Assembly (NCBI GenBank): GCA_009664345.1
Contig: CP043547.1
Coordinates: forward strand, 372,001 to 436,000
Direction: 5' to 3'
Length of the DNA stretch: 64,000 nucleotides
DNA from: Planctomycetales bacterium 10988
GTDB taxonomy: Bacteria > Planctomycetota > Planctomycetia > Pirellulales > Pb10988
Shown piece after piece: positions 18,385 to 26,545 of this stretch. The notes beneath the pieces were generated by a model. That model was not told the DNA's origin. It made no database searches and worked only from the letters and a program-made list of their open reading frames with translations. Every line of letters starts with the position of its first letter. Position 1 is the first letter of the stretch. The position numbers and the translations under genes were made by a program.

Positions 18385-18426
18385 CTACGGAACCGAAGGT
18401 TAGAGGTTCGAATCCTCTGGGGTGTA
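18385..18426 (+). other. tRNA-Arg 3' half: attachment site of the integrase
   Basis: CTACGGA reads as an anticodon loop (ACG), followed by ACCGA, a variable region, the T arm AGAGG-TTCGAAT-CCTCT and the acceptor strand GGGGTGT. The 5' half of a tRNA is missing: the bases to the left do not pair. A tRNA 3' half starting in the anticodon loop and lying 117 bases before a tyrosine integrase is a classic att core. No second copy is seen in the window. Confidence 0.75.
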
Positions 18427-18505
18427 TTTTTCTTAAGTTGTTACTTGAGAACACTTTAGATGTCACTCCAGGGAGGGAAATGTTCCACCCTAAATCCTGT
18501 TTAGG

Positions 18506-18521
18506 ATAGTACCGGTACTAT
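18506..18521. promoter_or_regulatory. Perfect 16-bp palindrome before the integrase
   Basis: ATAGTACCGGTACTAT is a perfect palindrome ending 21 bases before the integrase ATG, just upstream of its AAAGGAG site, and is followed by a T-run. It may be an operator for an element repressor, or an attenuator. Confidence 0.5.
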
Positions 18522-18542
18522 TTTTCAGGAAAGGAGTGGCGT

Positions 18543-24048: not shown

Positions 24049-24201
24049 TCACAAACCTAAACCCAATAGATAACAACATTTGCTACAGATGCGTGAACCT
24101 TGTGAACCTCCAAATAATATTCTGAATTTGATAGAGAGACAGTATTTAGCTATTACTGATTTAAATTTTGAATAAAGGAAATAGGTTCACAAGGTTCACG
24201 C
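24049..24201. repeat. Iteron-like repeats with a perfect 19-bp inverted pair; candidate origin or operator
   Basis: GCGTGAACCTTGTGAACCT at 24091-24109 is exactly repeated in inverse at 24183-24201, 73 AT-rich bases apart. Each arm is itself two direct copies of GTGAACCT. A further GTTCACAAACCT lies near 24049. The block sits between the helicase operon and the polymerase gene in a non-coding gap. Repeats of this kind bind replication initiators or repressors. Confidence 0.65.
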
Positions 24202-24290
24202 CTTAGCTTCCTAGCTTTCTCTGTCAGAATCCTCTACCTCAATCAGGCTTGGATAGGGAGAGGTAAATCTAAATAGAAAAATGAATCAGT

Positions 24291-25289
24291 ATGCAAATAT
24301 CTTTCCTTGACACGATTGCAAATTTTCAACCTTGGAAACCGGAACTAGGTCAAGTATATCAAAATCTATATAGTATACATATTGCAACTTCAAACATCGG
24401 ACTAAATCATCCTCGTATCGCACCAGTCTATATTCTAAGTGGGGTCTATGATGGGAAGCATGGTTATTTTCTGACTCGTGAGAATGTTTATGACTTCATG
24501 ACAATCCATCAGGATATAGAGATTATCTTTCATGATGCTCCGTCGAATCTTGCTATGTTGGAATGTCTATTGCTAAGAGAAGAAAAGGATATAGATGTCT
24601 ATAGACTAATCGATGAAAACCGATTATACGATACTCAGCTCCTCCACCGCTTGTTTATGCTTGCTTCAGAGGGCCATACTGCCAGAGGTGAAGATGAAGC
24701 AACCTTAGAGAGATGCTCTCAGGACTATTTACAGATTCCCTTAGCGATGACTAGTATTGCCCCCCAACGTAATGAAAATCGGTTGTCATTTGACAAATGG
24801 CTTGGTCGTCCTCCTCAAGAAATAGAACCGGAATATTTAAGGAGTCTTGCAGAAACTGCTGTCTTAACGTTCCATCTCAAGCACGAAATTTTAGGGAGGA
24901 TATGGAATTTATTACAAGGGAGTAGTTCTGTTTGGGGTTATCCTCCAGGAATAATGAATCAGATTTGGAAGTTTGGTTACTTAACACATCATATTCAGTT
25001 GAAAGGAGCTGTCGCCTTAAAAAAAGTAACGGAAAATGGTCTCTGTGTAGATCTTGATAGCACAGAGTCGCTTCAGGCCGAACTTGATTTTTTGGAGCTA
25101 GAGTTAAAACATCAACTACTTGCCAAAGGTTTCAATCCAGATGGGAAAGGTTCCTCTCAAGCTTTACAAAAACAGCTAAAAAAATTGAACGCAAGCATCC
25201 ATTTTATAGTTTCCTTAAAACTGATCATGGAGCGTATGTCACTTCACAGGAAGCTTTGCAAGAGCTGGCTGATTATGAACCATTCATAG
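24291..25289 (+). CDS. Family A DNA polymerase, N-terminal part
   Basis: 332 residues ending by a frame change. The first 200 residues resemble the 3'-5' exonuclease-type domain seen in family A polymerases (IIFHDAPSNLAMLECLL, LYDTQLLHRLF, EDEATLERCSQDYL). Residues 200-310 form the start of the thumb (HHIQLKGAVALKKVTENGLC). From base 25178 there is a run of seven A. Shifting back one base there gives IERKHPFYSFLKTDHGAYVT and then joins the palm encoded downstream. In the frame given, the last 20 residues are out-of-frame sequence. Together the two parts would make a polymerase of about 750 residues. Confidence 0.75.
   Translation: MQISFLDTIANFQPWKPELGQVYQNLYSIHIATSNIGLNHPRIAPVYILSGVYDGKHGYFLTRENVYDFMTIHQDIEIIFHDAPSNLAMLECLLLREEKDIDVYRLIDENRLYDTQLLHRLFMLASEGHTARGEDEATLERCSQDYLQIPLAMTSIAPQRNENRLSFDKWLGRPPQEIEPEYLRSLAETAVLTFHLKHEILGRIWNLLQGSSSVWGYPPGIMNQIWKFGYLTHHIQLKGAVALKKVTENGLCVDLDSTESLQAELDFLELELKHQLLAKGFNPDGKGSSQALQKQLKKLNASIHFIVSLKLIMERMSLHRKLCKSWLIMNHS
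25176..25185 (+). other. A AAA AAA heptamer at the polymerase frame change
   Basis: Codons are CTA AAA AAA TTG in the first frame, so the seven A lie in the phase used for -1 ribosomal slippage, and the second frame is exactly -1. I see no strong downstream hairpin. Transcript slippage or a one-base deletion would have the same effect. Confidence 0.55.
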
Positions 25290-26545
25290 AGAAATACCTG
25301 ACTTTCAAAACTATCAAACATCTAAAATCAAGTGTTTCTAAACTAAGTCAGAAGCGGATACACTCATCTTTTGAGCCACTTCTAGTTACAGGCCGTACCT
25401 CATCTTTCGGTGAAATGAATATCCAAAATTTTCCTCGTCTGACAAGTGTTAGATCTTGTATTGTTCCATCACCTGGAACGGTTTTCATTTCAGCGGATTA
25501 TAAAACTATTGAACTTGTATCGTTAGGACAGGCGCTAATGAGTCAATTCAAATTGTATTCGCATATGGCAAACGCGATTAATAACGGCCATGACCTCCAT
25601 TCTATGGTAGCAGCTCAGGTAACAGGCAAAGCGGTCTCGGAGGTGAGCAAGGAAGATAGGCAACGTGCTAAAGCTATAAATTTTGGAAAGCCTGGAGGGA
25701 TGGGAGATAAAGCTTTACAACGTTATGCAAAAGAGAGCTATGGTGTCGACCTGGATGAGGCTGAAACGAGAGAACTCTCTGAAACCTGGACCAAACTGTT
25801 TCCAGAGACGGAGGAATTTTTAAAGCGTTACGAATGCTATAATACTGGCTATAAAGTCGCTTTATTTCTCAACCTTGCTGATTCTCCTCGAACGGACACC
25901 CGCATTGACCAACCCTCAGGGACATCTGGAATAGGAACAGCACTATCCTTCAAAGATCTCTCGATTCTCGGATGGATGTGTTTGAAAACATTGGCAGTAT
26001 CAGAACCTGTATCTGCGGAAGGGTATCGATATTCTCAGCACGATATCAACTTTTTTTGGTCAGCTGTTCAGCGATGTGTCGATCACTTTCCTACAGACTT
26101 ACAGCCTTTTATCCGAGATCGAACCGCTACACCTAGATTATCGAATTGGATTCGAAAGGAAGTGGATAAATTCCCTGTATTTACACTGACCGGTCGACTG
26201 CGAGCCTCTGCGAACTATACAGCTCGACATAACACGATCTTTCAAGGACTTGCCGCTGATGGTGCGAAGCTCGCATTATGGAAACTTCTTAGGCATGGCT
26301 TCAAAGTTGTAAACTTTATCCATGATGAATTTTTAATAGAAGTTCCAGAGTCCTCAAATCTGAAACAACAGGCTGAGAAAATCAAGCAACTAATGATTGA
26401 GGGAATGCGTGAGGTAATCCTCGATTTACCAATCGAGGTCGAATATGCTGCGATGAGGCGTTGGTATAAAGATGCCGAGGCAGTCTATGATGAACAAGGG
26501 CGACTCGTCCCTTGGGAACCCAGTGAGGTCATCAATTTGAAGTAA
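25256..26545 (+). CDS. Family A DNA polymerase, palm and fingers
   Basis: The frame carries all three polymerase motifs: motif A FISADYKTIELVSLGQ (residues about 77-92; Asp in place and the usual IEL), motif B RQRAKAINFGKPGGMGDKAL (about 138-157, with Lys, Phe and Gly of the O-helix) and motif C VNFIHDEFLIEVP (about 353-365, HDE). The listed TTG start is probably not used: the sequence joins upstream through KTDHGAYVTSQEALQELADY in this frame, beyond the end of the first part. A polymerase of its own makes this element unusually independent of the host. It is not followed by other element genes. Confidence 0.8.
   Translation: MQELADYEPFIEKYLTFKTIKHLKSSVSKLSQKRIHSSFEPLLVTGRTSSFGEMNIQNFPRLTSVRSCIVPSPGTVFISADYKTIELVSLGQALMSQFKLYSHMANAINNGHDLHSMVAAQVTGKAVSEVSKEDRQRAKAINFGKPGGMGDKALQRYAKESYGVDLDEAETRELSETWTKLFPETEEFLKRYECYNTGYKVALFLNLADSPRTDTRIDQPSGTSGIGTALSFKDLSILGWMCLKTLAVSEPVSAEGYRYSQHDINFFWSAVQRCVDHFPTDLQPFIRDRTATPRLSNWIRKEVDKFPVFTLTGRLRASANYTARHNTIFQGLAADGAKLALWKLLRHGFKVVNFIHDEFLIEVPESSNLKQQAEKIKQLMIEGMREVILDLPIEVEYAAMRRWYKDAEAVYDEQGRLVPWEPSEVINLK

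What the first reader, a model, noticed from the sequence alone, without database searches (positions are those of the whole stretch)
18385..26545. Self-replicating integrative element with PrimPol-like primase, ATPase and its own family A polymerase
Integrase, possible excisionase, primase with zinc ribbon, helicase-like ATPase, small acidic-tailed protein and DNA polymerase form a full replication set, yet no capsid, relaxase or conjugation gene is seen. It could be a phage satellite or a phage-plasmid core of a new type in planctomycetes.
Basis: partly seen in the sequence, partly recalled or inferred. Interest (0 to 1): 0.75.

Follow-up and report, generated by a model that had tools for sequence, protein, structure and literature searches.

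The report
Self-replicating planctomycete island, polymerase gene broken
A planctomycete chromosome carries a jumping DNA island that brings its own copying kit (primase, helicase, likely copying start site and DNA polymerase); the kit recurs in the same order in other planctomycetes, but in this copy the polymerase gene looks damaged.

Summary
The observation largely holds. A tyrosine integrase, a DUF1580 excisionase-like protein, a zinc-ribbon primase, an ATPase, a small tailed protein and a family A polymerase lie in one direction at 18543-26545, next to a 44-bp fragment of tRNA-Arg (18385-18428). The intact tRNA-Arg lies 40.3 kb upstream; a third copy is inverted, 131 kb downstream.

Sixteen of 18 fetched related loci share the primase-ATPase-PolA order. 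The primase model has the archaeo-eukaryotic primase fold; a relative's ATPase model matches SaPI5/D5/NrS-1 replicative helicases. The small protein corresponds to the C-terminal domain of longer relatives of the helicase. New: a candidate origin before polA, paired 9-bp repeats facing each other, with a 9-bp tandem in 14 of 17 loci although the letters differ.

Two corrections. In this copy polA is split between two frames and its exonuclease has lost all four catalytic residues, so it is probably impaired. The right end was not found. No capsid, terminase or conjugation gene was recognised at significant scores (lists partly truncated); satellite status is untested.

Best reading: an integrative, self-replicating island family, pipolin-like in lifestyle but built on PolA, with an SaPI-like helicase and origin. 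New variant of a known kind.

The parts
18385..18428 (+). attachment-site core: 3' part of tRNA-Arg(ACG), left end of the element
   Evidence: Perfect 44-bp copy of the 3' part of the intact tRNA-Arg at C1:350048-350123; third perfect copy inverted at C1:521871-521914. One match in the window, mean 0.00 in 100 shuffles.
18543..19775 (+). tyrosine integrase
   Evidence: PF00589, phrog_1; strong homologue upstream of the module in 5 of 16 relatives, weaker ones in 3, none found in 8 (four of these on short contigs)
19756..20697 (+). ORF of unknown function between integrase and excisionase-like gene
   Evidence: ORF only; no significant Pfam, PHROG or PADLOC match, no tblastn match in 18 fetched loci
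20981..21298 (+). DUF1580 protein, excisionase-like
   Evidence: PF07618 7.8e-16; phrog_66 'excisionase and transcriptional regulator' 0.0044, weak
21424..22179 (+). AEP (PrimPol-like) primase with C-terminal zinc ribbon
   Evidence: AlphaFold model pLDDT 86, pTM 0.82; S-2L PrimPol Foldseek 4.4e-06, VIA Z 9.1 (rmsd 3.2, 140 aligned); AEPs fill most of the list, the others under Z 8. D56, D58, H106, D140, C206, C209, C224 invariant in 17 of 17
22182..23591 (+). D5/SaPI-type replicative helicase ATPase
   Evidence: Model of a fused relative (L086, pLDDT 74; not of the window protein itself): SaPI5 primase-helicase Z 11.8 (rmsd 4.8, 301 aligned), vaccinia D5 10.9, NrS-1 10.7. Walker A NQSGVGKT aligned with relatives
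23588..23977 (+). small protein: predicted winged-helix, origin-binding domain (inferred), linker, conserved GN(D/T)xxW end
   Evidence: Homologous to the C-terminus of longer ATPases; three helices then strands in the fused model, not searched alone. GN(D/T)xxW at or next to the C-terminus in 9 of 10 aligned proteins
23998..24201 (.). candidate replication origin: 9-bp repeats (GTGAACCTT); arms 24091-24109 and 24183-24201 perfectly inverted, 73 nt apart, each with two tandem repeats, plus one single repeat at 23998-24006
   Evidence: 19-bp perfect inverted repeat, maximum 9 in 60 shuffles; the 17-bp double repeat occurs only in these two arms in the window even with 3 mismatches (2 matches; 2 of 100 shuffles also reach 2); same layout in most relatives
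24291..25289 (+). polA, N-terminal half (3'-5' exonuclease domain, catalytic residues lost)
   Evidence: Aligned with 16 full-length relatives; D, E, D, D of the exonuclease are H, A, N, T here and conserved in 16 of 16 relatives
25178..25184 (+). run of seven A, at or near the change of reading frame
   Evidence: ORF2 lies in the -1 frame relative to ORF1; the run sits in the A_AAA_AAA register; no downstream structure better than shuffles (z -0.74 and -0.34)
25256..26545 (+). polA, C-terminal half (polymerase palm and fingers, catalytic motifs intact)
   Evidence: PF00476 1.2e-39; motif A D, motif B K, motif C HD present

Best explanation
A tRNA-targeted integrative element with a dedicated replication cassette, of a family spread through Planctomycetia; this copy is probably impaired. 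Working model: (1) the tyrosine integrase recombines the 44-bp tRNA-Arg 3' end, helped by the DUF1580 protein for excision [inferred; architecture shown]; (2) in the excised circle the small winged-helix protein binds the 9-bp iterons that lie just downstream of its gene and, through its GN(D/T)xxW tail or directly, brings in the D5/SaPI-like hexameric helicase, which opens the DNA [inferred, by analogy with SaPI Rep, whose C-terminal domain recognises iterons directly downstream of its gene]; (3) the zinc-ribbon AEP primase makes primers [fold and conserved residues shown, activity inferred]; (4) the element's family A polymerase extends them [inferred; the 16 relatives keep the 3'-5' exonuclease residues, this copy does not]. 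Transfer between cells must use an outside vehicle [inferred]. In this genome other elements sit at the same tRNA target (40-kb island A upstream; a remnant element at 521 kb).
For: Same-strand order primase-ATPase-(small protein or domain)-PolA in 16 of 18 fetched loci plus the window. Integrase about 105 and 125 nt after an intact tRNA in two relatives (tRNA-Pro, tRNA-Gly) and shortly after tRNA-Val in a third; 115 nt after the att fragment here. In G034 copies of the tRNA-Val end at three places bound what look like two tandem elements, each with its integrase. AEP fold; SaPI/D5 helicase fold. Candidate origin: lag-9 tandem run of 8 or more in 14 of 17 loci against 137 of 4325 overlapping background windows; longest inverted repeat beats all 60 shuffles in 10 of 17; clean pairs also in L087, L093 and L103, not used to find it. 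SaPI Rep and SCCmec Cch2 use iterons just downstream of the helicase gene (PMC7581432, passages). Patchy distribution: primase family in 9 of 396 genomes of the order, own genome included. No capsid, terminase, relaxase or T4SS family among the listed matches (E <= 1e-5) of 52 ORFs of the G034 tandem and 145 flank ORFs of 12 loci.
Against: polA here is in two frames and has lost all four exonuclease residues. The right end is undefined. No gene beyond polA is broadly conserved, so 'element' rests on the left end and the module. The integrase family was not found near the module in 8 of 16 relatives, four of them with over 5 kb of upstream DNA held (G034b, G042, G089b, G392). Three of 17 loci lack a strong 9-bp tandem (G042, G079, G089a), and in 7 of 17 some shuffles match the inverted repeat; of 11 held-out loci measured (without shuffles; L089 gave no value) 5 reach a run of 8, one of them a CCA-type simple repeat. 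Copy number and excision untested. The lists show only 25 of 26, 50 and 72 families; many PHROG matches are of unknown function.
Confidence: 0.75

Rival explanations
1. A phage satellite: the element excises and replicates as above but is packaged by an unknown helper phage. (Rivals here are not mutually exclusive with the best explanation.)
For: Integrase, excisionase-like gene, primase, SaPI5-like helicase (Z 11.8), iteron-like repeats and absence of recognised structural genes resemble satellite anatomy as given in PMC6092414 (abstract and passages read).
Against: No terminase small subunit or capsid gene among listed matches at E <= 1e-5. The bounded relative that holds the module (G034) is about 57 kb, larger than the 12-15 kb given for PICIs. 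0 of 80 kept viral loci with related PolA carry primase or helicase.
Confidence: 0.15
2. A defective prophage or phage-plasmid core that has lost its structural genes.
For: PolA relatives at about 30% identity abound in viral contigs (177 matched, 80 kept); partial helicase relatives occur in 53 phage records. An ORF of island A (17204-17917, outside this element) has a chance-level match to a terminase small subunit (phrog_6834, E 0.032).
Against: No structural family among the listed matches of 145 flank ORFs of 12 loci (25 of 50 families shown). In phage records no place covers 80% of the helicase and all are under 60% identity; the primase was not searched there.
Confidence: 0.08
3. A dead remnant: in this genome the module no longer functions.
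For: polA frame break and loss of exonuclease residues; right att missing; a sister element at C1:521 kb is truncated, its integrase match covering 267 residues.
Against: Integrase, primase, helicase and small protein are open frames; conserved primase and helicase residues are present and polymerase motifs A, B and C are intact. An assembly error in a run of A cannot be excluded.
Confidence: 0.35
4. The polymerase is made by programmed -1 frameshifting at A_AAA_AAA.
For: ORF2 is in the -1 frame and the heptamer is in register.
Against: 16 of 16 relatives use one frame; no downstream structure better than shuffles.
Confidence: 0.08

Closest known systems
Pipolins (piPolB elements; PMC7385651, abstract and passages read)
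   Same: Mostly integrated, in E. coli in one conserved tRNA gene, with tyrosine recombinases and att-like terminal direct repeats; own replicative polymerase, variable cargo
   Different: Family A instead of family B polymerase; here a separate AEP primase, helicase and iteron-like candidate origin
SCCmec pattern 2 replication module CCPol-MP-Cch2 (PMC7581432, abstract and passages read)
   Same: A-family polymerase, small protein, D5-type helicase and iterons next to the helicase gene in a chromosomal mobile element
   Different: Ccr (resolvase-family) recombinases; neither CCPol nor MP is an AEP; CCPol has no exonuclease domains and primes together with MP
TV-Pol elements (PMC2579912, passages read)
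   Same: Superfamily A polymerase linked to D5-like helicase or to integrases in mobile elements; members reported from planctomycetes, with Gemmata obscuriglobus and Rhodopirellula baltica in the species list
   Different: TV-Pols are described as never fused or linked to nuclease domains; here 16 of 16 relatives keep a DEDD exonuclease domain, and a separate AEP is present. The sequences were not compared directly
Cryptic integrated elements with PrimPol-PV1 primases (PMC5862659, abstract and passages read)
   Same: Integrated elements, often in tRNA genes, with AEP, helicase and WH domains, one class without phage or conjugation genes
   Different: Primase here is a separate gene and was not assigned to their families; an adjacent PolA did not appear in the passages read; the word planctomycet does not occur in the main text
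PICIs/SaPIs and P4-like satellites (PMC6092414, abstract and passages read)
   Same: Integrase, replication module (SaPI5-like helicase fold), repeats as origin, no structural genes
   Different: Own DNA polymerase here; larger bounded relative; no shown helper phage, packaging site or repressor

Membership tests
Archaeo-eukaryotic primase superfamily (gene 21424-22179) | AEP fold with DxD, H and third acidic residue | tested here: met
   best S-2L PrimPol, Z 9.1; D56, D58, H106, D140 invariant in 17 of 17. The assignment of these residues to AEP motifs is recalled
D5/SaPI-type replicative helicases (gene 22182-23591) | D5-type helicase fold with P-loop | tested here: met
   on a fused relative (36 Foldseek matches at E<=0.001, 35 poxvirus D5/E5 and one ASFV PrimPol; VIA Z 11.8 SaPI5, 10.9 D5); Walker A in alignment
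Pipolins | piPolB family B polymerase | tested here: not met
   The polymerase is family A (PF00476)
Pipolins | att direct repeats at both ends, at a tRNA gene | tested here: inconclusive
   Left repeat found; no right repeat in C1:334000-445000
TV-Pol elements | Minimal A-like polymerase without nuclease domains | tested here: not met
   Exonuclease domain with its four residues in 16 of 16 relatives and in degenerate form here
SCCmec pattern 2 | Resolvase-family ccr recombinase and CCPol-MP without AEP | tested here: not met
   Tyrosine integrase and AEP primase
PICI / phage satellite | Integrase and replication module | tested here: met
PICI / phage satellite | No structural or lytic genes | tested here: inconclusive
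   None among listed matches, but one search shows 25 of 50 families and the right end of this element is unknown
PICI / phage satellite | Size about 12-15 kb | tested here: inconclusive
   This element's right end unknown; the bounded relative in G034 is about 57 kb
PICI / phage satellite | Helper-phage induction and packaging into particles | not testable with these tools
   Needs phage experiments
Prophage | Capsid, portal or terminase genes | tested here: inconclusive
   None among listed PHROG matches of 145 + 52 ORFs (25 of 50 families shown in 106); most of the window's own flank ORFs were scanned with Pfam only
ICE / mobilizable element | Relaxase or T4SS genes | tested here: inconclusive
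   None among listed Pfam matches; lists of 83 and 107 truncated

The most novel reading that the evidence does not exclude
A class of self-synthesizing integrative elements built on a family A polymerase: a constant cassette of D5/SaPI-like helicase, inverted pairs of 9-bp iterons and PolA with interchangeable primases (stand-alone AEP in planctomycetes; fused AEP-TOTE in a Dependentiae MAG, DnaG-type or DUF3854 in Oligoflexia, weakly DnaG-like in a Phycisphaerales MAG), dispersed by tRNA-targeting integrases and carrying defence and other cargo.
Probability: 0.45. Interest if true: 0.72.

Novelty: new variant of a known kind. Interest (0 to 1): 0.58.

Why it matters
Few integrative elements are known to encode a DNA polymerase; self-synthesizing transposons are described as using family B (PMC7385651, abstract), and the A-like exceptions (TV-Pol elements, SCCmec) lack an exonuclease domain (PMC2579912, PMC7581432, passages). 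A group based on a PolA with exonuclease domain, its own AEP primase, an SaPI-like helicase and a recognisable candidate origin would offer a minimal replicon for planctomycetes, and would show primases being swapped around a fixed helicase-origin-polymerase core. The 9-bp period that stays while the letters change makes origin recognition by the small protein directly testable.

Tried and rejected
Ordinary chromosomal genes: rejected, because the module is patchy (9 of 396 genomes of the order by the primase profile, own genome included) and in three relatives its integrase sits behind different tRNAs. Sequence search of the PDB with primase and helicase profiles gave no relative; only fold comparison did. 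Pfam on the 17 primases gave nothing useful. Rfam gave no match in the window and ARAGORN no intact tRNA in it. Scans with single window proteins found nothing in genome contigs (helicase) or viral contigs (PolA half and helicase); the PolA alignment did. Degenerate att copies: none above 27 of 44 matches in C1:334000-445000 other than the two perfect ones. tRNA repeats inside the 14-20 kb loci of relatives: none direct; in 80-kb stretches G034 showed them, and G089, G079 and G042 did not. Programmed frameshift: no supporting RNA structure. An inversion joining this element to the copy at 521 kb was considered; it cannot be decided. A likeness of the iterons to those of P4 alpha is recalled only; a text search found no source to check it. 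ORF 19756-20697 remains unexplained. Paper searches for this element found no description of it (open-licence PMC only, listings read).
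Full report
Place and host. The window is C1:372001-436000 of a 6.65-Mb single-contig genome. The host is therefore a planctomycete of the class Planctomycetia (inferred). No other genome of its family was searched.

Left end. The finding's start is right. Window 18385-18428 is a perfect copy of the anticodon-to-3'-end part of tRNA-Arg(ACG). The intact gene lies at C1:350048-350123 and a third perfect copy is inverted at C1:521871-521914. The integrase starts 115 nt after the fragment. The 521-kb copy is likewise followed, 113 nt on, by a 53%-identical integrase on the minus strand; the match covers 267 residues, after which the reading frame leaves the family and stops. 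In relatives G089 and G079 the same integrase follows an intact tRNA-Pro or tRNA-Gly at about 105 and 125 nt, and in G034 tRNA-Val. So the fragment was most likely the tRNA-proximal end of this element (inferred), and the 40.3-kb stretch between it and the intact tRNA is another island (A) with its own integrase beside the tRNA (C1:350204-351793, minus strand, PF00589 1.6e-12). G034 shows similar stacking: tRNA-Val at 5297-5369 of the joined stretch, repeats of its 3' part (47 and 52 bp) at 62454 and 74359, and a second integrase just after the first of these.

Right end. No further att copy, even degenerate (best 27 of 44), lies in C1:334000-445000. Downstream of polA the window has short unassigned ORFs, a large Ig-like/FG-GAP protein, a transposase and a resolvase. 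In relatives no gene beyond polA is broadly conserved. The element starts at 18385 and extends at least to 26545; its end is unknown.

Gene by gene. Integrase, DUF1580 protein and polymerase are recognised by family models. The primase is not; its AlphaFold model (pLDDT 86, pTM 0.82, 10 sequences) matches cyanophage S-2L PrimPol best (Foldseek 4.4e-06; VIA Z 9.1, rmsd 3.2, 140 aligned), then CRISPR-associated Prim-Pol, RepB', LigD and PriS; only the first exceeds Z 8, but AEPs fill most of the list. For the ATPase I folded the fused relative L086 (pLDDT 74, pTM 0.63). Its best matches are the SaPI5 primase-helicase (Z 11.8, rmsd 4.8, 301 aligned), vaccinia D5 (10.9) and NrS-1 (10.7). The small protein of the window corresponds to the C-terminus of longer ATPases. 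In the model that part is three helices followed by strands, read here as a winged helix; it was not searched alone. Nine of ten aligned proteins carry GN(D/T)xxW at or next to their C-terminus; L090 does not.

Conservation and spread. The ATPase search hit 112 of 397 genomes of the class at E <= 0.001, many of them distant helicases. I fetched 18 of the best places (14 genomes with the module, two without); 16 places hold primase, ATPase and PolA in the same order and strand, and two (L058, L059) only the ATPase. The integrase family is strong in 5 of these 16, weaker in 3 and not found in 8, four of which have only short upstream DNA. The primase profile hit 9 of 396 genomes of the order, own genome included; of six further contigs fetched, two hold primase-ATPase-PolA, one the same with PolA cut by the contig end, and three end before PolA. 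The more distant loci L085, L093, L094, L095 and L103 pair PolA with one fused protein of the same helicase type. Its N-terminal part matches AEP-TOTE (L093), CHC2 zinc finger/DnaG (L094; L085 only weakly), DUF3854 (L103) or nothing clear (L095). Of the 80 viral loci kept (177 matched), none carries the primase or ATPase. L091, L108 and L112 pair the integrase and PolA without a recognised primase or ATPase.

Candidate origin. Between the small protein and polA the window holds GCGTGAACCTTGTGAACCT and its exact inverse 73 nt apart, plus a single GTGAACCTT at 23998. The longest inverted repeat in 60 shuffles was 9 nt, against 19 observed. Many relatives show the same layout with related letters (GGTGGACCT, GGTGAATGT, GTTAACCTT). 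A lag-9 run of 8 or more occurs in 14 of 17 loci (not G042, G079, G089a), against 137 of 4325 overlapping windows elsewhere in the same loci; the inverted repeat exceeds all 60 shuffles in 10 of 17. Of 11 loci not used for discovery, 5 reach the lag-9 run; L208 is a CCA-type simple repeat and L095 a longer tandem array, while L087, L093 and L103 show clean pairs. L085 (run 7, inverted repeat 19) fits in part; L212 and L209 have inverted repeats of 30 and 18 without the 9-bp pair; L091, L094 and L108 do not show the pair (no shuffles were run for these). SaPI Rep recognises iterons directly downstream of its gene through its C-terminal domain, and SCCmec Cch2 likewise binds repeats beside its gene (PMC7581432, passages). 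Function as origin here is inferred from position, repeat type and that analogy.

State of this copy. polA is one ORF in 16 of 16 module-bearing relatives but two ORFs here, the second in the -1 frame, the change lying at or near a run of seven A. All four exonuclease carboxylates are replaced (H, A, N, T), while polymerase motifs A, B and C are intact. One distant relative (L112) also has a fragmented polA. Loss of the proofreading residues suggests decay or relaxed selection (inferred); an assembly error could explain only the frame break.

What is absent. Among the listed matches (E <= 1e-5) of 52 ORFs of the G034 tandem and of 145 flank ORFs of 12 loci there is no capsid, portal, terminase, tail, relaxase or T4SS family. 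One search lists all its 16 families, several of unknown function; the others are cut at 25 of 26, 50 and 72, so this is support, not proof. The only packaging-like match noticed is a chance-level one in island A (17204-17917, phrog_6834, E 0.032). The scanned ORFs of the G034 tandem include type I-C CRISPR proteins (Cas_Csd1, Cas5d, Cas1).

Comparison. It works like a pipolin (own polymerase, tRNA att, tyrosine recombinase) with an SaPI-like helicase and repeats. It is not a pipolin (polymerase family), not a TV-Pol element (exonuclease domain; though TV-Pols were reported from planctomycetes) and not SCCmec (recombinase, AEP). The class 'cryptic integrated MGE' with AEPs (PMC5862659) is the nearest broad home. 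I found no description of this family in the searches listed. I rate it a new variant of a known kind.

Noticed in passing
window 12158-14832: Retron of type III-A: reverse transcriptase (PADLOC RT_III-A, 4.3e-140) next to a PRTase effector with wHTH (PRTase_III-A, 1.4e-89), inside island A between tRNA-Arg and the att fragment.
   Followed up: partly
C1:350124-390384 (window 1-18384 is its right part): 40-kb island A between intact tRNA-Arg and the att fragment, with its own tyrosine integrase beside the tRNA, a Y-family (IMS) polymerase gene at window 15780-16982, a weak NACHT-like match at 9383-10840 and a 3524-aa LEPR-start ORF.
   Followed up: partly
C1:520868-521914 (L006, L009): Remnant of a sister element: perfect att copy and an integrase whose match covers 267 residues, in inverted orientation.
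   Followed up: partly
C1:529582-535006 (L009, L010): Another helicase of the same type (31% identity), followed by an 837-aa helicase-like and a 472-aa ParB-like ORF (read by eye, no family search): perhaps a different replicating element.
   Followed up: no
C1:923778-924242 (L003, L011): A third, weaker match to the helicase (29%, 5.7e-9) in the same genome; tyrosine integrase matches lie at 869-900 kb.
   Followed up: no
L042, L060-L062 (G034): Tandem of about 57 and 12 kb at tRNA-Val; its scanned ORFs include type I-C CRISPR proteins and sigma factors.
   Followed up: partly
L112:7068-9522: A Pirellulaceae MAG has an integrase of this family and a fragmented polA, a second possibly broken copy.
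   Followed up: no
window 44307-64000 and beyond: One open frame of 7551 aa on the minus strand with a LEPR-type start, similar in its first residues to the 3524-aa ORF at C1:361780.
   Followed up: no
window 37076-38752: Transposase (DDE) and serine resolvase downstream of the module.
   Followed up: no
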